Shown here: positions 6,015-62,582 of the stretch, piece by piece
Numbering within the stretch: position 1 is the stretch's first letter
Layout of the letters: every line of letters starts with the position of its first letter
The notes under the pieces: model-generated
The model's input: the letters and a program-made list of their open reading frames with translations, nothing else
Databases searched by the model: none
What the model was told of the DNA's origin: nothing
Made by a program: the position numbers and the translations under genes
Assembly (NCBI RefSeq): GCF_008326425.1
Contig: NZ_AP018929.1
Span: 1,874,875 to 1,938,874, forward strand
Origin: Sulfuracidifex tepidarius
Lineage (GTDB): Archaea; Thermoproteota; Thermoprotei_A; Sulfolobales; Sulfolobaceae
Reading direction: 5' to 3'
Length of the DNA: 64,000 nucleotides

Positions 6015-6211
6015 TTCACTCTCCAAACTTACAGAGTAATCATCATTTAAAAAATTTGTTAATATTTTTAACTACTTCTTTGAAATTTAGATTTAACTTT
6101 CTGTCTCTTGCTTCAAAATAAGAGGAAAGAGATTTATTTATTAGAAGAAACTTTTTACTTTATAAATACTTTAGTCTCATAAAAATATGAGGATATATCT
6201 TAGATTTTTCT

Positions 6212-6647
6212 CTTCTCTTTATCCAGTGTAGTAAGGTGTTGTCACTGAGGAAGACGACACTATTACTCCCCACATACCTGCAGCAGCATGTCCTTCGATA
6301 CCGCAGCAGAACCAGTATATCCCAGCGGGTAGAGACACCGAACCGGTAGCGCTAGCTCCGCCGTTTATTCCGTTATCTAGGTATGTTGAAGGAGTTGTTC
6401 CCACGTACAGCTTTATAGTACCGTCTTGCCCTACGTCGTCTCCAGGGGTGGCTGTGTTGTTACTGACTATGAGGAAGTTGTGAGAAAGTCCCTCTTGGTT
6501 GGTATAGGTCACCAGTACGGTCCACCCTGCAGGGATGTACACGTGGAGCTGGCCGTTACTCGTCCCGTTGAAGTTGAAGGGAGTTGCAGAGCTCAGCGAG
6601 ACAATATCAAGGAAGACCGTCTTATTTGAGCTATCGTAAGGAAGCAT
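6212..6647 (-). repeat. 436-bp identical direct repeat, unit 1 (sulfocyanin cupredoxin domain)
   Basis: Read base by base against 6981-7416 (constant offset 769) I find no difference. The repeat starts seven bases past the stop codon and ends at the codon for Met of the MLPYDSS segment, then the sequences diverge at once. This is the signature of recent duplication or gene conversion confined to the copper domain. Confidence 0.9.
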
Positions 6648-6830: not shown

Positions 6831-6980
6831 TTTACATCAATAAAAATTAAAAAAACCTACTATATATATTTAACCTATAAAAACTAAGAAGAGATAACCA
6901 AGGATTAAAATTCTCAATGTTAAATATTGCAATTAAACCAAGAAAAGTAAAAACAAAAAAGTAAAAAATAAAAATTTCCC

Positions 6981-7416
6981 CTTCTCTTTATCCAGTGTAG
7001 TAAGGTGTTGTCACTGAGGAAGACGACACTATTACTCCCCACATACCTGCAGCAGCATGTCCTTCGATACCGCAGCAGAACCAGTATATCCCAGCGGGTA
7101 GAGACACCGAACCGGTAGCGCTAGCTCCGCCGTTTATTCCGTTATCTAGGTATGTTGAAGGAGTTGTTCCCACGTACAGCTTTATAGTACCGTCTTGCCC
7201 TACGTCGTCTCCAGGGGTGGCTGTGTTGTTACTGACTATGAGGAAGTTGTGAGAAAGTCCCTCTTGGTTGGTATAGGTCACCAGTACGGTCCACCCTGCA
7301 GGGATGTACACGTGGAGCTGGCCGTTACTCGTCCCGTTGAAGTTGAAGGGAGTTGCAGAGCTCAGCGAGACAATATCAAGGAAGACCGTCTTATTTGAGC
7401 TATCGTAAGGAAGCAT
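6981..7416 (-). repeat. 436-bp identical direct repeat, unit 2 (sulfocyanin cupredoxin domain)
   Basis: Second unit of the repeat at 6212-6647. The flanks outside this block are unrelated: different linkers and anchors on one side, different intergenic DNA on the other. Confidence 0.9.
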
Positions 7417-10266: not shown

Positions 10267-10324
10267 AATAGGAAGAAGATGACGTGTTACATATAGAGGA
10301 GTTCTCATGCTATATTTATCCTAA

Positions 10325-10640
10325 TGGGGGTTTAAGGGGGCAGAAGACCCTCGTCAGGGTGGGGATGGATAGCCCTTTATGGCAAAGGGTAAATGCGACA
10401 AGTATCACGTACATTTCAACGACAGTCACAGACGTGGCACGCATCACCGAGACGCCTCTAAGCAAGAGTCTTGTGTATGCCCCTACTGCAATCAGTAGTC
10501 CTATAGTCTGGGACAATCGGTGACATTCATAGGCCAGGGTAAGAACGACCAGTGTGGGGCTCTGCCCTCTACACGTGACTTGGTTACGGGGATGGTAGAG
10601 CTATGAAGCAGGAAGTCCCTAGGAGGGCGGGGGTAGTTCA
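10325..10640 (+). mobile_element. IS200/IS605-like end remnant without transposase, copy 1
   Basis: The segment has a left hairpin (ACCCT...AGGGT) followed by GGGGATGGATAGCC, a middle part, CATCACCGAGACGCCTCTAAG, and a right end GAAGCAGGAAGTCCCTAG...GTAGTTCAC. Copies 2 (13398) and 3 (38826) follow the same order. Such motifs resemble the ends of archaeal IS200/IS605 elements and the 3' part of tnpB, where the guide RNA of TnpB is encoded. No intact tnpA or tnpB is present. Its right tip supplies the stop codon of the ATPase gene on the opposite strand. It explains the gene-free stretch 10267-10637. Confidence 0.5.
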
Positions 10641-11912
10641 CCAATGCAAAAGTAAGAACTTGTAAAGCGGTACCATTTTTATTTCCTTTCCTTTAATTTT
10701 CTCAATCCCATCAATGTCATAAGTTACTATTATCCTCTCCTTAGCTTTAACTACTTCATCCGCCTTTAGTATCCCCTTTATTTCTCTCTCCTCCACCTTG
10801 TCTGAAGCATAAGTGACTTGAATTAAGCGTGAGTTTAACTCGTCATAAAAATCTACCTCAAAGTCACCCCCCTTAATGTAATACATACCTTTCAACTGGT
10901 TTTCTCTAGCTAACTTGAGGAAAACTGTATTCTCCATGACTCTCCCTTTATCCTTAGCCTTTATTGCCACTCTGGATATAATACCGGGATCTATCACGTA
11001 TACCTTCTTGCTGAAAGTTAGCCTCTCCCTCGGTCTTTCCCCATATCTAGGTAAAAAATATGTAAGGTAAGCGTTTTCTAGACCATATGCCCACTGGTCT
11101 ACGGTCTTTTTGTCCACGGAAATCGTCTTAGCTAACTTACTAAGTGAGACCTCTGTAGAATAATAAGAGACCAAGCTCTTTGTAAAGTCCTTAAACTTAC
11201 CCATCTCTCTTACCTTATATCTGAAGATTATGTCCTTAAACAACACGTCATTATATATTATGTCGACTTGGTCTTTACCTATGATAAGAGCTTCAGGAAA
11301 ACCTCCATCTTCAAGGTATTTCTCAAGTTCCGTCTTGACCTCTGCCGTCCTCTTGGTTGAGATGGGCACTTCTTCACTTTCTCCTTTAAAACGTAAGTAC
11401 TCTCTAAAAGAAAAGGGAAACAGGACTACGTCGGAATGCCTGCCGGTGAGTGTCGTAGCTAACTCTCCGGAAAGCATCTTAGAATTACTACCCGTTACTA
11501 TGACTCTTTTAGTTTCCCTCAATCTAGACGTGAACAGCTCCCAACCTTTGACGTTGTGGACTTCGTCTAAGACAAGATAATTTACATTACCACCGTAGAC
11601 TTCATATACTCCCTGTTCAAGGTTCCTCAAGTCCTTCGCAGTAATTCCGTAAAGACTTTCGTCGTCAAAGTTTAAGTAAGCGAAGTTCACCCTCATTCTT
11701 TTCATGAGTAATAAGGAAAGAGTTGACTTACCAGACCTCCTTACGCCTAGTATCGCTAGAACATTAGGGACGCTAAGGTATATGGACAAGTCGCTAGGTA
11801 TGTCCCTCTCTACGTAGTTCGATGACATCTTCTCTTGTATAAGATCCTTTTGGTCCGCCACTATCCTTTTTGCCTCTTCGACGTTCATATATGGTGGAAT
11901 ATACTCCTCCAA
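10638..11912 (-). CDS. Archaeal P-loop ATPase with DUF4143-type C-terminal domain
   Basis: A 424-residue protein. Walker A is GVRRSGKST (about residue 57), Walker B is YLVLDEVHN (about 112) and a sensor VTGSNSKML follows near 140. The second half (LEDGGFPEAL, then KTVDQWAYGLENAYL and YVIDPGI) has the pattern of the DUF4143 nuclease-like domain joined to AAA_14 ATPases. These proteins are common in archaea and often sit in accessory DNA; their role is unknown. It abuts an IS200/IS605-like remnant whose end overlaps its stop codon, so its original C-terminus may have been altered, though the length is normal. Confidence 0.8.
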   Translation of the reverse strand: MEEYIPPYMNVEEAKRIVADQKDLIQEKMSSNYVERDIPSDLSIYLSVPNVLAILGVRRSGKSTLSLLLMKRMRVNFAYLNFDDESLYGITAKDLRNLEQGVYEVYGGNVNYLVLDEVHNVKGWELFTSRLRETKRVIVTGSNSKMLSGELATTLTGRHSDVVLFPFSFREYLRFKGESEEVPISTKRTAEVKTELEKYLEDGGFPEALIIGKDQVDIIYNDVLFKDIIFRYKVREMGKFKDFTKSLVSYYSTEVSLSKLAKTISVDKKTVDQWAYGLENAYLTYFLPRYGERPRERLTFSKKVYVIDPGIISRVAIKAKDKGRVMENTVFLKLARENQLKGMYYIKGGDFEVDFYDELNSRLIQVTYASDKVEEREIKGILKADEVVKAKERIIVTYDIDGIEKIKGKEIKMVPLYKFLLLHW

Positions 11913-13332: not shown

Positions 13333-13397
13333 TGAATTTTTTTAATCCCTCTTTCCCTTTAAGCTTTGGCATGAAATTGAGTACTTTATCTGATTGG

Positions 13398-13692
13398 CTT
13401 CACGGCGCGGAAGACCCACGTGAGGATGGCTTAGCCCCTTTGTAGTGAAAGTCAAATACAAAAAGTTGTATGCGTATTTTAATGAAATTCACAGAACGGG
13501 GGCAAGCGTCACAGAGACTCCACCAAACGAGGGTCTGTGGTACGCCTCTCCTCATTAGTAGTCTTCAAGACACGTGGGATGTTCACTCAAGGTCAAGTCG
13601 GAACGACCCGTAGAGCTCCGCCCTCCACAAGTCCTTGGCAAGGTAGAGTCACGAATCAAGAAGCCACTCGTGAGGGCAGGGTAGTTTACTTC
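13398..13692 (+). mobile_element. IS200/IS605-like end remnant without transposase, copy 2
   Basis: Same order of motifs as copies 1 and 3: CGGAAGACCCACGTGAGGATGG at the left, then GAAAGTCAAATACAAAAAG, a shared core with ATTAGTAGTCTTCAAG, and GAAGCCACTCGTGAGGGC...GTAGTTTAC at the right. Copies 2 and 3 are the closest pair. No transposase gene. It explains the gene-free stretch 13333-13836. A frame of 64 codons across it is not convincing as a protein. Confidence 0.5.
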
Positions 13693-18229: not shown

Positions 18230-18716
18230 CGACTTGATATAAGAGTTTTCCTTGACGTGCCAATTCGGAAAAAGGGAAGGGGGTTCCCGATGACTTCGGA
18301 ATCCAAGGGCTGAGAAGGACACAAATCCATGAAAATTTAATGAAGCCTAAACCCGTCAAGCGGACTACCACGCCCTCACTCAGAACTTTCGCTCCCTTAA
18401 CCTCCAAAAAGTTAAGAACGCCTAAAAATAATTTGTAGCATAGAACAAGATATTTAGAACTACTGTATAACCTAAATTATTATATTAAAAATGATTTAAT
18501 GATATTATTGAGCTTCATATCTGCTGAAAATTCCTTAAGACCATGGAAGACATCACGTTCATCACCGTTAGATCTGCGTCTTTCGAAAGTTCTAGTGCGA
18601 ATGCCTTCACATGCGAATTATATATACACGACAAAGGCTATCAGTTGGGAAGGTTATGGAACCTAACCTGAGAGGAAACTACGAGCGTTTAATAATGATG
18701 TTATCAATAGTTACAT
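18230..18716 (-). mobile_element. Divergent promoter region with IS200/IS605-like right-end fragment
   Basis: On the minus strand GAGTGAGGGCGTGGTAGTCC (about 18365-18385) repeats the right-end motif of the element at 38826-39140. The rest of the element is not recognisable. The stretch also contains the control region between kdgK and the dehydratase gene; CGTTTAATAATG at about 18686-18697 looks like the TATA box of the latter. Confidence 0.4.
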
Positions 18717-20779: not shown

Positions 20780-20995
20780 TGAAAATACGGTGCATATCTC
20801 ATCTAGTCAAGTAGATCACTGTTCTGCTTAATTTCTGCATGGAAATACAGATGCAAATATCTATAATAACTGAAAATTTTTTAAATTGCAATATATAGTA
20901 AATTTTATCTAGATGAGAGTAAGGAAACGGAAGGGTCAGCGTCATGGTAAGACAAGTTTGTATTTCCTCCTAAGAGATAATTGACATTTCTTGAA

Positions 20996-21174
20996 TGGCA
21001 GTTTACGGGAATTCCTGCGGTCTAAATGTTTTTACCTAGAGCGTTATAAAAAATTTTATCTATTCTGTGGTGAGGAGATTTAGAAACTACAGCTAATTAT
21101 TTAATCTATATCACGTCACTATTAAATTATTTTTAAGGTCACGTAACTCTGGAAGGGTTTTCCGATAAAAGCTA
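20996..21174 (+). repeat. MITE-like element, copy A
   Basis: About 179 bp. Left tip GGCAGTTTACGGGAATTCCT and right tip whose complement reads TAGCTTTTATCGGAAAACCC form imperfect terminal inverted repeats. Between them are shared AT-rich segments (GAGGAGATTTAGAAACTACA, AGCTAATTATTTAA). Related copies: B 48616-48797 (same orientation), C 30210-30395 and D 31346-31529 (opposite). No coding capacity, so it would be moved in trans. It fills much of the gene-free stretch 20780-21198. Confidence 0.75.
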
Positions 21175-30209: not shown

Positions 30210-30395
30210 TAGCTTTTTTTATTGAAAAATCCCTACAGAGTTACTGAGTGTTAAAAACAATTTAATGGCAATAGGATAGAGATTAGATAGTTAGCTATAA
30301 GTTTGAAAATGTTCTCACTGTAAAATGAATAAAATTTATTTTATGAGGCTACAGGACGAAAATATTTAGATAATAGGAATTCCCGTTAAAAACTA
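30210..30395 (-). repeat. MITE-like element, copy C
   Basis: About 186 bp, inverted relative to copy A. Starts TAGCTTTTTTTATTGAAAAA and ends GGAATTCCCGTTAAAAACTA. It lies in the gene-free stretch 30086-30673, the rest of which shows nothing recognisable. Confidence 0.7.
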
Positions 30396-31345: not shown

Positions 31346-31529
31346 TAGCTTTTATCGGGAAATCCTTACAGAATCACGTGACCTTAAAAATAATTTAATA
31401 GCGATTAGGAGATAGACTAAACAATTAATTATAAGTTCTAAAATCTTCTCACTATAAAATGGATAAAATTAATTTTATTACACTACAAGATGAAAACATT
31501 TAGACAGCAGGAATTCCCCTAAACTGCTA
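31346..31529 (-). repeat. MITE-like element, copy D
   Basis: About 184 bp, inverted relative to copy A. Starts TAGCTTTTATCGGGAAATCC, ends GGAATTCCCCTAAACTGCTA. CTCGG flanks it on both sides (31340-31344 and 31530-31534), which may be a target duplication, although similar bases follow copy A. It fills much of the gene-free stretch 31163-31666. Confidence 0.75.
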
Positions 31530-31666
31530 CTCGGCTTACAAAAAATCTATATCACTTTTATTGATAATATATATCCTAACCTATCAAAGTTCATTATTAA
31601 CTTTATGCCCTTTTTAAAGAAAGTTTTTTATTCTTTGAAAATTATATTATTTAATGGGTGAAAGTG

Positions 31667-37701: not shown

Positions 37702-38825
37702 TTCAAACCTTATATGACCTCTTGACTATTTAAGTTTGTATTTCGATAATTTTATCTCGATGTAAACTTAATAAAATGTATTTAGGTTGAATTTAAATAT
37801 ACTGCTAGCTAAATCTGTTATTCATGGTATCTCAGTTCATGTGATGGTGAAGAGAATACATTTTAGTTTATCAAGTCTGTTATTATATTATATCATCTCA
37901 ATTTCTTATTAATATGGTTCGCAAAGTTTCATTTTTAACTTACTAGTTGTGGGGAGAAGAAGTCCCTTCAGTGAGGATATACCCCCTTATAGTACTTCGT
38001 AGAACACTACAATTCCTTTTGATATTAAGTCTGCTAATTTACACTAAATTCTAAATCTAGCATTTAGCTAAAAGAGTGTTTCTTCCGCGTCTTTGGACGA
38101 ATTGAAGAAGTCTACAAAACACCCTTATGAAAAATCTTCTTACGTTAGTCAAAAATGGATGTGAATATGCGATACAAGATAGTAGGGAGATGTCATTAGT
38201 TCACGCTCTTTACTATCACTATGTCATAATTCATCAGGCTTTAAAGGTGAAGTGAACTTCATTCAATATTGACGTCTAAGGCTTACCGCACCTCCTCAAG
38301 AAACGTTAGGTCATTTGCCCCCACGGATACGTAGTGTAGGAACCTCCCCACGTTTCACGTTAATGTCTGGAACTACGTGTGAATCTGAAATATAAACCTT
38401 GTCTTTTAAGGTATGACGAAGTATAACTTCTCCGAGTCTGTAAGCTACTTCTCCTATAACGATGATAGAGATAGTAGGACAGTAATGAAAATGGATCTAA
38501 AGAATTCCAAGAGGTGTACTAAATATAGACATGCTAAGGAGGATCTGACTTTGTAATCCTGTATTTGTCTGTTCTTATTGTGTTGATTGTTGATCGTAAC
38601 TACAACGCTTCTCTAGAACTTGGAGATTTGTAGTCAGTGTCATTTTACACTTATTCTCTAGATATTAAGCGAAGCGGTACTAACTATTCCATTTCTTAGT
38701 ACGTCCATAGAGCGATGAAGTAAATACTTGAGTCCTTTGAGGCTTTAGCCTCACCGACATCTCTAGAGAGACGGATAACAAAAGTGAAGAGAGACTTGAG
38801 ACGTAGAGATGAAAATAATTTTACC
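37702..38825. other. Gene desert
   Basis: Over 1.1 kb with stops in all frames every few dozen codons and no recognisable domain. It probably contains decayed DNA, but I cannot identify the source. Confidence 0.4.
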
Positions 38826-39140
38826 TTGATGGAGTTAAGGGGTCGAGGACACACGTGGGGATGGATAGCCTCTTTGAAGTGAAAGCTAAATACAAAAAAG
38901 CCGTATGCATATTAAATGGCAACCATCGACGGAGTAGGCGTCACCGAGACGCCTCTAAGCGAGGGTCTTTGTGGTACGCTTCTGTTCATTAGTAGTCTTC
39001 AAGGCACGTGGAATGTTCACTCAAGGTCGGGATCGGAACGACCGGTGTGGAGCTCCGCCCTCTAACAGTTAACTGCTGGCAAGGTGGAGCTGGGAAGCAG
39101 AAAGCCACGTCAGTAAGGGCGTGGTAGTCCACGCTCTCTC
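38826..39140 (+). mobile_element. IS200/IS605-like end remnant without transposase, copy 3
   Basis: Left part GTGGGGATGGATAGCC, then GTCACCGAGACGCCTCTAAG shared with copy 1, TTCATTAGTAGTCTTCAAG and ATGTTCACTCAAGGTC shared with copy 2, and a right hairpin CCACG...CGTGG within GAAAGCCACGTCAGTAAGG. A frame across the core reads VTETPLSEGLCGT..., which could be the tail of a tnpB gene. No tnpA. It is the most complete copy. Confidence 0.5.
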
Positions 39141-48615: not shown

Positions 48616-48797
48616 GAGCAGTTTACAGGAATTCCTTCGATTTAAATATTTTCATTTTTTAGTGTTACGAAATAAATTTTATCCATTTTACACTGAGGAG
48701 ATCTTCGAACCTATAGCTAATTATTTAACTTCTGTCATATCAATACTAAATTTTTTTTAATGTCTCGTAACTCTGCAAGGTTTTCCGATCAAAGCTA
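48616..48797 (+). repeat. MITE-like element, copy B
   Basis: About 182 bp in the same orientation as copy A: AGCAGTTTACAGGAATTCCT at the left, GGTTTTCCGATCAAAGCTA at the right. Its last 14 bases are also the start of a 106-bp direct repeat (48784-48889). Confidence 0.75.
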
Positions 48798-48889
48798 AAC
48801 GCATACAGTGAACCGTAGAGGCTTAGGATTGTATTCCGTCTTTTGCATTAATATGAGCTAAAAATGTTGAATTTTTTGTTTTCTATTAC
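48784..48889 (+). repeat. 106-bp direct repeat, unit 1
   Basis: Identical to 51719-51824 (constant offset 2935) as far as I can read. It begins in the right tip of MITE copy B and continues into unrelated DNA. The second unit ends exactly at the stop codon of the MFS exporter gene. Confidence 0.88.
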
Positions 48890-58739: not shown

Positions 58740-59366
58740 GTGAACTCCGTGGGTACATTATCTCTCATGTCAAAACACAAATATGGCTCTGCAGGAACGC
58801 TTACACTTGTGGAGATCTCGTTCATATTAGCTTCATCGCTAGTGATAGCGTTCAACTTGGACTTCCCTTACACCAGGGAAGTGATGGGAGGGAAGGAGGT
58901 CTCATTCATGAACTTCATGATAACCTTCGTAACTGCAATGTTCTCCATAATACCGGTGAGGAATGCTTCCTTCGGAATGTCACAAGACATTTCAGATGGA
59001 ACGTTTATGACTTTCGTTCAGATGGAGGGCAAGTTCAAAGCTTTCATTTACGCGTATCTCATGGACGTGCTGTACCCGATATCTATATTCCTGGTGGTCG
59101 GGACTCTAGTTCTTACTTTAGCAACGTTGAACTACCTGTGGTGGGCCGTAGAGAGCTTAACAGGTTATATGTTCGTGGCTAACTTGTCTTACACTTCGTC
59201 CTTGGTTCTCAGGAAGACGTTCAGAACTTTCATAGGTTCCGTTCTGTCGATTTTCATTTACTTAGCTATAATCTTTCTAGATCTAGGATCAATAGCCCTC
59301 TTAGCTGTGATAGACGTCCTCCTTCTGTCTTTCCTTTTGTACAAGTTCAGGTGCATCGAGATATGA
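58740..59366 (+). CDS. ABC-2-type membrane protein
   Basis: 208 residues from GTG 58740 (an ATG at 58770 is an alternative). Six helices; the segment FGMSQDISDGTFMTF (about 78-93) is the coupling helix type seen in ABC-2 permeases. Lies 34 bases after the ATPase. Its stop overlaps the next start (ATGA). Confidence 0.7.
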   Translation: MNSVGTLSLMSKHKYGSAGTLTLVEISFILASSLVIAFNLDFPYTREVMGGKEVSFMNFMITFVTAMFSIIPVRNASFGMSQDISDGTFMTFVQMEGKFKAFIYAYLMDVLYPISIFLVVGTLVLTLATLNYLWWAVESLTGYMFVANLSYTSSLVLRKTFRTFIGSVLSIFIYLAIIFLDLGSIALLAVIDVLLLSFLLYKFRCIEI

Positions 59367-59842
59367 TAGGCTATACTTTAGCTTCTTTAGGACTTCTGAT
59401 TCTGGCTTTCTCCTTCATAGCCTTACCTCTAAGCTCCTCCTACGTCACCACTTGGAACTTCACTTCTCCTCCATGGTTCACGAGGTCGGTAATACACGTC
59501 CATAACGGAAGTTTCGTTTTCACCAACTCTACGACTACTTTACTTCTGAATTCAAGCTTTAAGTTGAAGACATCAGGAACGTTCTCCCTTAAGGGTGAAG
59601 GAAACGCCTCCATAATTTTCCACGGCGTGAGATTGTTTTACGGATTCTATCCAAGGCTAGTTGGGTATTTGCTAACTGGGATAGGAGCCTTCATAGAGGC
59701 GTACCTTTTAGCTAAGAGGATGAAATGGGTGAGATTTAGCATGAAGGAAATAATCCTAAAGAAAGTAGGAAGAGAAAGAAGAAAAAAGGAAGGAAAGAAA
59801 ACCATGAAGAAAGGAAAGCAGAAAAAGAAGAGAACGATATGA
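59363..59842 (+). CDS. Two-helix protein with beta domain and very basic tail
   Basis: 159 residues from ATG 59363 (overlapping the upstream stop). An N-terminal helix, an extracytoplasmic domain of ~70 residues rich in N-x-T/S sites, a second helix (about 97-115) and a tail with more than half Lys/Arg (from about 135). The tail lies in the cytoplasm and could bind nucleic acid or phospholipid. Family not recognised. Confidence 0.55.
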   Translation: MIGYTLASLGLLILAFSFIALPLSSSYVTTWNFTSPPWFTRSVIHVHNGSFVFTNSTTTLLLNSSFKLKTSGTFSLKGEGNASIIFHGVRLFYGFYPRLVGYLLTGIGAFIEAYLLAKRMKWVRFSMKEIILKKVGRERRKKEGKKTMKKGKQKKKRTI

Positions 59843-59959
59843 TTCTTAAAAACGAAACAATTGAAGGCAGTCCTAATATAGCGAACAGCCTTTTTTTGTC
59901 AGTTAACTTGTACAAATTATATGTAGTGAATTTTTATTAGCCGTTTAACCTTAAATAAC

Positions 59960-60676
59960 ATGATCCCCTTGTTGTCAGCCCTTCACGTCTCTAAGAAATA
60001 CTTCTCCGAAGTCCTTCACGACATCACATTCAAAGTGGACAAAGAAAGAGTAGGTGTGATAGGGCTTCATTCCTCAGGAAAGAGCGTCCTTCTATCCATT
60101 CTCTCTGGGATCGAGAAACCCACCTCAGGTAAGGTTCTACTCGACGAGAGACCTCTGAACCCGTCCCTAGTAGCCTACATACCTCAGGCCCCACTTTTCG
60201 ACCCGCTGATGAAAGTTAAGGAGGTATGCAAGGGCTCTGACGTTGAAGGCGAGAGAAGGCTTGGTTCCTTGTCTTTGCTGGAAAAGAAGAAGGTTGCGTT
60301 CTGCATGACACCTGAGGCTGAGTATCTGGTATATGACGATTTCGACGAATCTCTCACAGACCTGGTGAAGGGCTTCAAGGGAGGTGTCGTTCTGTCAAGT
60401 GTAAGCCCTTCCAAGGTATGGAATGTGATAGACAAAGTGATAGTCCTCTCTAGAGGTAGAGTCGTCTTCTCGGGAAACAAGGAGAGTCTTAACTTCAAGG
60501 TAATAAGATTTAGGGACGGAAAGCAAATCAGGGAGACATGGGAGAGATCTGACAGCTTTGACGTCGAGAAAAGGCTCAACTCCTCTGGAGTTAAGTACGA
60601 CGTAATTGAGGCTAGTCCAGACGAGGCATTCTGGATGATCCTTTCAAGTAAGGGTGAGGAAAGGGAACTAGGGTAA
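59960..60676 (+). CDS. Degenerate ABC ATPase
   Basis: 238 residues. Walker A GLHSSGKS is intact, Q-loop YIPQAP present. The signature is replaced by GSLSLLEKKK, Walker B reads YLVYDDFDE with Asp where the catalytic Glu should be, and no H-loop His is seen (VVLSSVSPSK). So it probably binds ATP but hydrolyses poorly. It may pair with the intact ATPase at 57833 as the asymmetric half. Overlaps the convergent gene by nine bases. Confidence 0.75.
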   Translation: MIPLLSALHVSKKYFSEVLHDITFKVDKERVGVIGLHSSGKSVLLSILSGIEKPTSGKVLLDERPLNPSLVAYIPQAPLFDPLMKVKEVCKGSDVEGERRLGSLSLLEKKKVAFCMTPEAEYLVYDDFDESLTDLVKGFKGGVVLSSVSPSKVWNVIDKVIVLSRGRVVFSGNKESLNFKVIRFRDGKQIRETWERSDSFDVEKRLNSSGVKYDVIEASPDEAFWMILSSKGEERELG

Positions 60677-61648
60677 TGGTCTAGTCCTCACTGCCCTCCA
60701 TATGCCAACTCCTAATACTGTGATAGAGATCAAGACAGCTAAAAGGAGCTCGATTTCCTCTTCATGGTAAAATATTCCAGCTAACATGTAGCTCAGGATC
60801 AAAGGGGAGTACTTCACCCCCCTTCTTCCGGCTATGAGAACGACCCCCGTGAATGTGAGGAAAAACGAGAGGGAGAATACTACAAAGGGCAACACGTCCC
60901 ACACAACTAACCCTAGCGAGTTGCTGAGCGTAATGAAGGACACGGCTGACGAAAAAGCCATTAACAAAGTAGTGTAAAATAGCCTTCTAGTCAAGATCGT
61001 CATACCCTTCCCTATTCTCTTCAATAAGTCCATCTGCCCCCTAGGAAAAGGAATAAATTGAAAGAACGATATTACTCCTCCTACCGTCAACGTACACGCA
61101 AGGAGAAAGTAGACTGGCAAAGCGAAGTCGGTTAATCCGTTCACGTGGGACTCATGGTTCTTTATGGTGAAGACTCCCTCCTGCTCATCTCCACGAACAG
61201 TCGAGAGAGATGCGGAGATGTTCTCTCCCCTGATGAGGACATAAGATAAATCCCTCGACTGATAATGTCCTGCAGACATTGGCGATATAGCAAAGGTATA
61301 CGTTCCAAGAGAACTGAGGTTGAATCTTTCCTTCGTCCCCTGGGCAAATACAGTGACGTTGATGTTAAGCGGAGGTACGGTTGTTTCATTATACATAAAG
61401 ACTACGCTACCATTATCCGTGGAGACGGTTTCGTTGAACGAGGAGGAAGAGAACCTCACATACCCATTGAACGGTTCACCGTCATAGTTTACCAAGAACA
61501 TCGATACCTTCAGGGAAAAAGCTCCTTCTTCCACAACTCCAACTCCGTCAATTCCTGGGGGGTCGTAGAGATATGTCAGGCTAGAGGACAGGATCAAGAC
61601 GCTGAAGAGAAGAGCTACAATGATGACTCTCTCGATTTCGCTTTTCAT
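60668..61648 (-). CDS. Membrane protein with extracytoplasmic domain, ABC-locus partner
   Basis: 326 residues from MKSEIERV; a TATA-like TTTATTTAAT ~25-30 bases upstream supports this start against 61690. Helix 1 (about 5-25), an N-glycosylation-rich outer domain (about 30-175), then five helices. It may be a third membrane component of the ABC locus, but is on the other strand. Family not recognised. Confidence 0.6.
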   Translation of the reverse strand: MKSEIERVIIVALLFSVLILSSSLTYLYDPPGIDGVGVVEEGAFSLKVSMFLVNYDGEPFNGYVRFSSSSFNETVSTDNGSVVFMYNETTVPPLNINVTVFAQGTKERFNLSSLGTYTFAISPMSAGHYQSRDLSYVLIRGENISASLSTVRGDEQEGVFTIKNHESHVNGLTDFALPVYFLLACTLTVGGVISFFQFIPFPRGQMDLLKRIGKGMTILTRRLFYTTLLMAFSSAVSFITLSNSLGLVVWDVLPFVVFSLSFFLTFTGVVLIAGRRGVKYSPLILSYMLAGIFYHEEEIELLLAVLISITVLGVGIWRAVRTRPLP

Positions 61649-62185: not shown

Positions 62186-62247
62186 TAAAGTTGAAGTGAG
62201 GTTTGAGGGAAAGAAACGCATAGGGACGAAGACGTTTACAGAAAAAG

Positions 62248-62582
62248 GGGGTTAAGGGGGCGGAAAGCCTCGCCTCTCTGAGGCGGGAATGGATAGCCCC
62301 CTTTGTTTAAATACTTCTTTGTGAAATATCTTTCAGTGATGCTAATGACGCTCCTCCCCAGCTTGACCGAGGGCTTAGGACTGTGGGAGGAGCAATTAAT
62401 ATCTCTCCTTTCCTTTAAGGGACTAGAGCTTTGCGATGAAAGTCCCCTCTTTTCAAGTGGGGGGCTCTCTGGCTACCCCGACTGCCCACCAAATGAGAGA
62501 TGTAATCCCGAATAGATGGTGGGAACGATGAGCCACTCTGGAAGGGAACCCTCGCCGTGGCGGGGAGGAAGTCAGACATACA
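62248..62582 (+). mobile_element. IS200/IS605-like element remnant, copy 4 (different subtype)
   Basis: Left hairpin CGCCTC-TCT-GAGGCG followed by GGAATGGATAGCCCCC, and a right end GGAACCCTCGCCGTGGCGG with a second hairpin (CCTCGCC/GGCGGGG) then AGGAAGTCAG. The core differs from copies 1-3. Both ends resemble those of IS200/IS605 elements and the tnpB 3' end. No transposase. It fills the gap before the TPP enzyme gene, ending at its stop. Confidence 0.5.

What the first reader, a model, noticed from the sequence alone, without database searches (positions are those of the whole stretch)
10325..10640. Family of transposase-less IS200/IS605-like remnants that may encode orphan TnpB guide RNAs
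Copies at 10325, 13398, 38826 and a subtype at 62248 (plus a tip at ~18365) keep the hairpin ends and a conserved core where TnpB's guide RNA scaffold lies, while transposase and most of tnpB are gone. Conservation of the scaffold without the gene suggests non-autonomous elements mobilised in trans, or guide RNAs used by a TnpB elsewhere; the guide would be the host DNA right after the GTAGTTCAC-type end.
Basis: partly seen in the sequence, partly recalled or inferred. Interest (0 to 1): 0.65.

Follow-up and report, generated by a model that had tools for sequence, protein, structure and literature searches.

The report
Mini-transposons carrying TnpB-type guide RNAs
These are not dead scraps but two old families of tiny jumping DNA elements in Sulfolobus-type archaea that lost their protein genes yet keep, under selection, a promoter and a folded RNA like the guide RNA of the DNA-cutting enzyme TnpB, which suggests that they borrow that enzyme to stay in the genome.

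Summary
The copies are real. In this 2.56-Mb Sulfolobaceae genome they fall into two families of transposase-less IS200/IS605-type elements. Family 1 (window 10320-10641, 13390-13689, 38825-39132) has a TTTAT-type left flank and TTCAC-type right end. Family 2 (62240-62575) has TTAC/GTCAG. Autonomous relatives with the same ends and tnpB exist, so the right halves are TnpB guide-RNA (reRNA) scaffolds. The elements are not remnants: family 1 has about 22 copies here and recurs in several other Sulfolobaceae genera; family 2 is ~80% identical across genera and occurs in a virus. Both keep a TATA box at a fixed distance and a new, conserved 5' RNA domain that covariance models do not find in the tnpB elements tested. 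Covariation is strong: family 1, 39 pairs, 34 compensatory events versus 6-14 when slid; family 2, 61 pairs, 30 versus 1-9, including a helix joining 5' domain and scaffold. The genome holds one TnpA, an intact family-1-type TnpB, and only broken family-2-type tnpB. Best reading: non-autonomous mobile guide-RNA genes moved by TnpA in trans and probably retained by TnpB in trans. Transcription and TnpB loading are untested. Well-kept copies also show a weak peptide-coding signal. Closest named kinds: Sulfolobus SMN elements, haloarchaeal PATEs.

The parts
10315..10319 (+). TTTAT left-flank motif (target / presumed TAM) of family-1 copy A
   Evidence: TTTAT is the commonest left flank of family-1 copies; TTTAT is the predicted TAM of solo tnpB elements in S. 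islandicus (PMC10640517)
10320..10641 (+). Family-1 element copy A (left-end hairpin to TTCAC right end)
10388..10395 (+). TATA-like box GGTAAATG of copy A (a weak match, 5 of 8)
   Evidence: box 27-32 nt before the 5' domain in most copies
10417..10489 (+). Conserved 5' RNA domain (helices P1 and P2) of copy A
   Evidence: covariance model R1, 69 bits, E 3e-15 (a sequence the model was built from)
10532..10641 (+). TnpB-type reRNA scaffold (S1, S2, S3) of copy A
10642..10661 (+). Host DNA after the right end = predicted guide of copy A
   Evidence: position only
13390..13689 (+). Family-1 element copy B; TTTAT at 13385-13389; 5' domain 13480-13554; scaffold 13591-13689; predicted guide from 13690
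   Evidence: insert missing from the matching place in G001
38825..39132 (+). Family-1 element copy C; TTTAC at 38820-38824; TATA-like box GCTAAATA 38885-38892; 5' domain 38914-38988 (80 bits); scaffold 39025-39132; predicted guide from 39133
62240..62575 (+). Family-2 element, TTAC at 62236-62239, ends GTCAG; predicted guide from 62576
62306..62313 (+). TATA box TTTAAATA of the family-2 copy
62334..62432 (+). Family-2 5' RNA domain
   Evidence: covariance model R2, 102 bits, E 3e-21 (a sequence the model was built from)
62459..62575 (+). Family-2 TnpB-type reRNA scaffold
18361..18383 (-). Possible solo right-end tip, about 20 nt, not significant alone

Best explanation
The window carries four members of two old families of non-autonomous IS200/IS605-type elements (300-336 bp). 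Shown: ends, target motif, TATA box at fixed spacing, a conserved RNA fold made of a family-specific 5' domain plus a TnpB-type reRNA scaffold ending at the right end, spread over several genera, recent movement of family 2 (copies 98-99% identical in unrelated flanks), and an intact Y1 TnpA and an intact family-1-type TnpB elsewhere in the genome. Inferred: TnpA moves them in trans; the promoter makes one RNA that runs through the scaffold into the flanking DNA, giving a guide of about 16-20 nt; a TnpB made elsewhere loads it and cuts the empty donor site (TTTAT or TTAC followed by the guide), so that the element is copied back by repair. They are mobile guide-RNA genes that parasitise TnpB as well as TnpA, and this explains why the scaffold is kept although the protein gene is gone.
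For: Genome-wide copies. Full-length tnpB relatives with the same ends. Covariation: family 1, 85.3% of cells paired versus 82.0 shuffled, covariation score 0.238 versus 0.190, 0/500 shuffles; family 2, 93.7 versus 88.7 and 0.203 versus 0.117, 0/500; parsimony counts 34 versus 6-14 and 30 versus 1-9 compensatory events for true versus slid pairs. RNAalifold finds the family-1 helices in the 25 best copies and the single copy L195 folds that way by energy alone. G-U cells exceed A-C cells 240 to 98, so the + strand is the one under constraint. A long-range family-2 helix (columns 71-75 with 216-220, seven A-U to G-C double changes) joins the 5' domain to the scaffold. TATA box at 27-33 nt in most copies, at the distance of the tnpB start codon. 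Left flank TTTAT = the motif reported for solo tnpB elements of S. islandicus (PMC10640517). One TnpA gene, whose element shares only left hairpin and right tip with family 1, so recognition by TnpA does not explain the conserved inner helices. Intact TnpB at L045:1505-2743. The linker is far less conserved (0.43 identity) than the 5' domain (0.75) and scaffold (0.64-0.69). Known biology: TnpB-guide retention and gene drive of IS200/605 (PMC11870625).
Against: No transcript data. RNAalifold on all 45 family-1 copies finds only P2. The family-1 structure was drawn partly from the same alignment that then tested it. Copy C alone folds into a rival hairpin in the 5' domain. Every family-2-type tnpB copy in this genome is broken, so the 62248 copy has no cognate TnpB here, yet its family moved recently. 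Single-strand DNA folding during transposition could also select helices. The 5' domain shows a coding signal too.
Confidence: 0.6

Rival explanations
1. Ordinary transposase-less IS200/IS605 derivatives (PATE/SMN-like): internal deletions whose right halves survive only because the right end and neighbouring DNA are needed for TnpA; the RNA has no role.
For: Such elements are known. The terminal hairpin S3 is a DNA signal as well. A TnpA source exists. Many copies are decayed.
Against: The TnpA-bearing element shares only the outer ends. Compensatory change extends to S1, S2, P1, P2 and the family-2 long-range helix. The 5' domain was not detected in the tnpB elements tested, so the elements are not simple deletions. 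Same architecture across genera.
Confidence: 0.2
2. Mini-genes: the 5' domain encodes a short leaderless peptide (family 1 MTVTDGVSVTETPWLKRGSMWYASAP..., family 2 VVLTTLLPSSIEGLMGLWEEQPSS...) that replaces TnpB and acts in transposition or on TnpB; the RNA fold is secondary.
For: dN/dS 0.32 in frame 0 versus 0.77 and 1.35 for 17 well-kept family-1 copies; 0.43 versus 1.28 and 0.77 in family 2. Start at the position of the tnpB start codon. SMN2 elements were reported to carry small ORFs.
Against: Start codon lost in about a third of family-1 copies, indels not in multiples of three, ORFs broken in the window copies. Frame downstream not conserved. No Pfam, NCBIfam or PHROGs match. The intact family-2 set was chosen for lack of stops. 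Helices persist where the frame is lost.
Confidence: 0.12
3. Domesticated guide RNAs: fixed copies whose flank-derived guides steer a TnpB or dead TnpB-like regulator to chosen genes.
For: Guides are defined by position and an intact TnpB exists.
Against: All flanks differ with no shared target. Copy B is missing from the matching place in a sister species. No sign of conserved loci.
Confidence: 0.05

Closest known systems
SMN1 and SMN2 (Sulfolobus mobile non-inverted-repeat elements)
   Same: Short (251-320 bp), no transposase, no terminal inverted repeats, in Sulfolobales genomes, viruses and plasmids; SMN1 transposition depends on the ISC1733 transposase (PMC3718332); SMN2 presumed moved by an IS200-type transposase and carries small ORFs (PMC3839810)
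   Different: SMN2 of virus SMV1 shows no significant match to models R1 or R2. No SMN1 sequence was at hand. The passages read on these elements do not describe them as guide RNAs; the primary SMN1 paper (Berkner and Lipps 2007) was not held.
PATEs (palindrome-associated transposable elements) of Haloquadratum walsbyi
   Same: Transposase-free, subterminal palindromes, derived from IS605/IS1341 elements; HqIRS71 keeps part of a TnpB C-terminal region (PMC3119063)
   Different: Haloarchaeal; no conserved promoter, 5' RNA domain or RNA covariation was described in the passages read
Solo tnpB (IS1341-type) IS200/IS605 elements with overlapping omegaRNA/reRNA
   Same: Same ends, same TTTAT or TTAC flank, same 3' scaffold, promoter at the same place
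   Different: No tnpB gene; its place is taken by a conserved RNA domain, and the promoter is joined to the scaffold
Stand-alone (trans-acting) omegaRNAs of IscB/TnpB systems (own recollection of Altae-Tran 2021; the paper was not held)
   Same: Guide-RNA scaffold without its nuclease gene
   Different: Here the RNA is the cargo of a mobile element family kept across genera; not tested against those RNAs

Membership tests
IS200/IS605 element (ends) | Subterminal imperfect palindromes near both ends, no terminal inverted repeats | tested here: met
   left hairpin GGGGGC...GCCCCC and right hairpin S3
IS200/IS605 element (ends) | Fixed short target motif at the left flank, no target duplication | tested here: met
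   family 1 mostly TTTAT; family 2 TTAC in 30 and TTAT in 8 of 41; no duplication seen in the flanks printed
IS200/IS605 element (ends) | Encodes TnpA (Y1), or is moved by one in trans | tested here: inconclusive
   none in the element; a single intact Y1 gene in the genome with matching ends; mobilisation not shown
TnpB reRNA/omegaRNA | Scaffold equals the 3' end of a tnpB element and ends at the right end | tested here: met
TnpB reRNA/omegaRNA | Conserved secondary structure with compensatory change | tested here: met
TnpB reRNA/omegaRNA | Match to a known Rfam family | tested here: inconclusive
   none reached threshold, but the autonomous tnpB elements also give none, so Rfam does not cover this group
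TnpB reRNA/omegaRNA | Transcribed, processed and bound by TnpB | not testable with these tools
   needs RNA-seq or RIP
SMN1/SMN2 | Sequence identity to SMN2 | tested here: not met
   no significant match of R1 or R2 to SMV1 SMN2; SMN1 not testable here
PATE | Transposase-free IS605-type element with near-terminal palindromes | tested here: met
   definition in PMC3119063
MITE (classical) | Terminal inverted repeats and target duplication | tested here: not met

The most novel reading that the evidence does not exclude
Sulfolobaceae carry old families of self-guarding miniature transposons: protein-free mobile guide-RNA genes with a dedicated 5' RNA domain that joins the TnpB scaffold into one fold, use TnpA for movement and TnpB for retention in trans, and perhaps overlap a tiny leaderless peptide gene.
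Probability: 0.42. Interest if true: 0.8.

Novelty: new variant of a known kind. Interest (0 to 1): 0.64.

Why it matters
TnpB is thought to keep its own transposon in place by cutting the empty site. If protein-free elements carry their own guide RNA and use a TnpB made elsewhere, then retention can be parasitised just as movement can, which bears on why TnpB is so common, why solo tnpB genes survive, and how guide RNAs became genes of their own on the path to CRISPR-Cas12. The families offer many natural guide RNAs with a new 5' domain for direct tests in thermophilic archaea.

Tried and rejected
Rfam search, window and elements: only sub-threshold hits and one tRNA; control shows Rfam lacks these scaffolds. 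Simple deletion remnant: rejected, because models of the 5' domain match none of the tnpB elements tested. Plain protein-coding element: ORFs broken in most family-1 copies including the window ones. Domesticated guides: no shared or conserved guides. Match of the copy-A right tip to 59108-59136: no TAM beside it, taken as chance. Exact-pattern scans of viral contigs (none) and genome contigs (Metallosphaera yellowstonensis only). Clean empty site for copy B: insert absent in G001 but the intergenic flank has diverged too far to read the right joint. Same-genome likeness of family-1 scaffolds to resident tnpB scaffolds (14 of 31 nearest in the same genome, label shuffle P 0.005) hints at scaffold exchange but ignores relatedness.

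Full report
Observation. The three copies at 10325, 13398 and 38826 align end to end. The window's own genome (2.56 Mb, one contig) holds 40 places that match the first copy at E below 0.001, among them several near-full copies. The fourth copy, 62248, is a separate family: five further near-full copies at 85-99% identity. The 18365 'tip' is about 20 nt and means little alone. Borders, from many copies with unrelated flanks, are 10320-10641, 13390-13689, 38825-39132 and 62240-62575.

What the right halves are. Full-length elements with the same ends lie elsewhere in the genome. L034 and L035 are tnpB-only elements; L043 holds an intact tnpA + tnpB element. Their tnpB genes (L034, L035) end in the stretch GATCRGGGTCGG..GACCC..GTGGAG..CCGCCCTCTACC..GGCAAGGTGGRG..GAAKCAGGAAGC..GTAGTTCAC, which is the family-1 right half. 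Family 2 corresponds in the same way to a second tnpB type, intact in other genomes such as L293 and L295.

They are families, not remnants. Family 1 is found in G007, G009, G015 and G019; the 5'-domain model also finds it in G002 and G115. Forty-seven full-length copies were collected. Family 2 matches at about 80% over its full length in G002 and G009, with at least a dozen copies each, and less closely in G003, G004, G007, G015, G020, G024 and others. A copy sits in virus STSV4, 98% identical to a G024 copy.

A new 5' domain. Between promoter and scaffold, family 1 has a ~75-nt stretch that covariance model R1 does not find in any autonomous element or family-2 copy tested, even at E = 5. 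Family 2 has a different one (model R2), also not found in the tnpB elements tested. Both begin where tnpB begins in the autonomous elements, and a TATA-like box lies 27-33 nt upstream in most copies. Both domains were found only in Sulfolobaceae, apart from one weak R1 match in another family of the order.

RNA structure. Family 1: P1 (GGAGUAAGCGU with ACGCCUCUGCUCC), P2 (GAC.CCU with AGGGUC), then S1, S2 and S3 in the scaffold. Counted on 45 copies and 39 pairs: 85.3% of cells paired (82.0 in shuffles, 36-46 when slid), 25 pairs with double changes, covariation score beyond all 500 shuffles. Family 2, 36 copies and 61 pairs: 93.7% paired, 20 pairs with double changes, score beyond all shuffles, with one helix that joins the 5' domain to the scaffold. 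Counting changes by parsimony on trees gives 34 compensatory events against 6-14 for slid pairs, and 30 against 1-9. Wobble pairs exceed their mirror image 240 to 98, so the + strand is constrained. Caveats: the family-1 helices were drawn partly by eye on the same alignment; RNAalifold on all 45 finds only P2, but on the best 25 it finds all five, as does the fold of L195 alone; copy C alone prefers another hairpin in its 5' domain.

RNA or protein. In well-kept copies the 5' domain also looks weakly coding: dN/dS 0.32 (family 1) and 0.43 (family 2) in the frame that starts at the tnpB start position, higher in the other frames. But start codons are lost in a third of family-1 copies, indels break the frame, and the window copies have no long ORF, while the helices persist. 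No library knows the peptides. A tiny overlapping gene remains possible.

Partners. The genome has one Y1 transposase, whose own element shares only the left hairpin and the last ~30 nt with family 1; the inner helices are therefore not explained by transposase binding. An intact family-1-type TnpB with D, E and D of RuvC (read by eye from the translation) is at L045:1505-2743. All family-2-type tnpB copies are broken, so the 62248 copy lacks a cognate nuclease here although three copies are 98-99% identical. The TTTAT flank of family 1 equals the motif reported for solo tnpB elements of S. islandicus (PMC10640517).

Mechanism. Shown: ends, flank motif, TATA-like box, conserved RNA fold, mobility by copy comparison, presence of TnpA and TnpB. 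Inferred: one RNA from the promoter into the flank, TnpB loading, cutting of the empty site, copy-back by repair. That TnpB guides serve retention and gene drive of IS200/605 elements is established (PMC11870625).

Known or new. As mobile elements they resemble SMN1/SMN2 of Sulfolobus (PMC3718332, PMC3839810) and haloarchaeal PATEs (PMC3119063). SMN2 is a different sequence; SMN1 could not be compared. No paper seen in my library searches describes such elements as carrying a TnpB-type guide RNA, but primary papers such as Berkner and Lipps 2007 and Altae-Tran 2021 were not held. I therefore call it a new variant of a known kind.

Noticed in passing
L190, L196, L272; and L267-L270, L273 (right ends): Some copies in three genera have their right end replaced by GGTAGACCCAAAATCACC or GAGCTTCCGGTATAAAAACCTTTCC, as if a third element had entered the terminal hairpin or an alternative right end exists.
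   Followed up: no
own genome, e.g. 59744-61014, 230899-232168, 362839-364106, 855608-856877: More than ten tnpB-only elements of the family-2 type all have stops or frameshifts in tnpB, yet several are closely alike: the gene decays while the element spreads.
   Followed up: partly
window 20993-21174, 30227-30389, 31346-31532, 48617-48804, 51176, 51714: Another dispersed repeat of roughly 100-180 nt with a GGTTTTCCGATAAAAGCTA core, in both orientations.
   Followed up: no
window 6206-6505 and 6975-7274: Two 300-nt copies 99% identical, 769 nt apart, next to short ORFs.
   Followed up: no
L315 (OP999031.1) 170-515: Virus STSV4 carries a family-2 element 98% identical to a G024 copy, annotated as four overlapping hypothetical proteins.
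   Followed up: partly
window 10632-10660 and 59108-59136: Right tip plus flank of copy A matches a stretch in another ORF at 86% over 29 nt, without a TAM; probably chance.
   Followed up: partly
L316 33927-34177 (SMV1 SMN2): SMN2 is a 251-bp element of different sequence; the tnpA+tnpB IS in the same virus ends in the same GAAGTCAG as family 2.
   Followed up: partly
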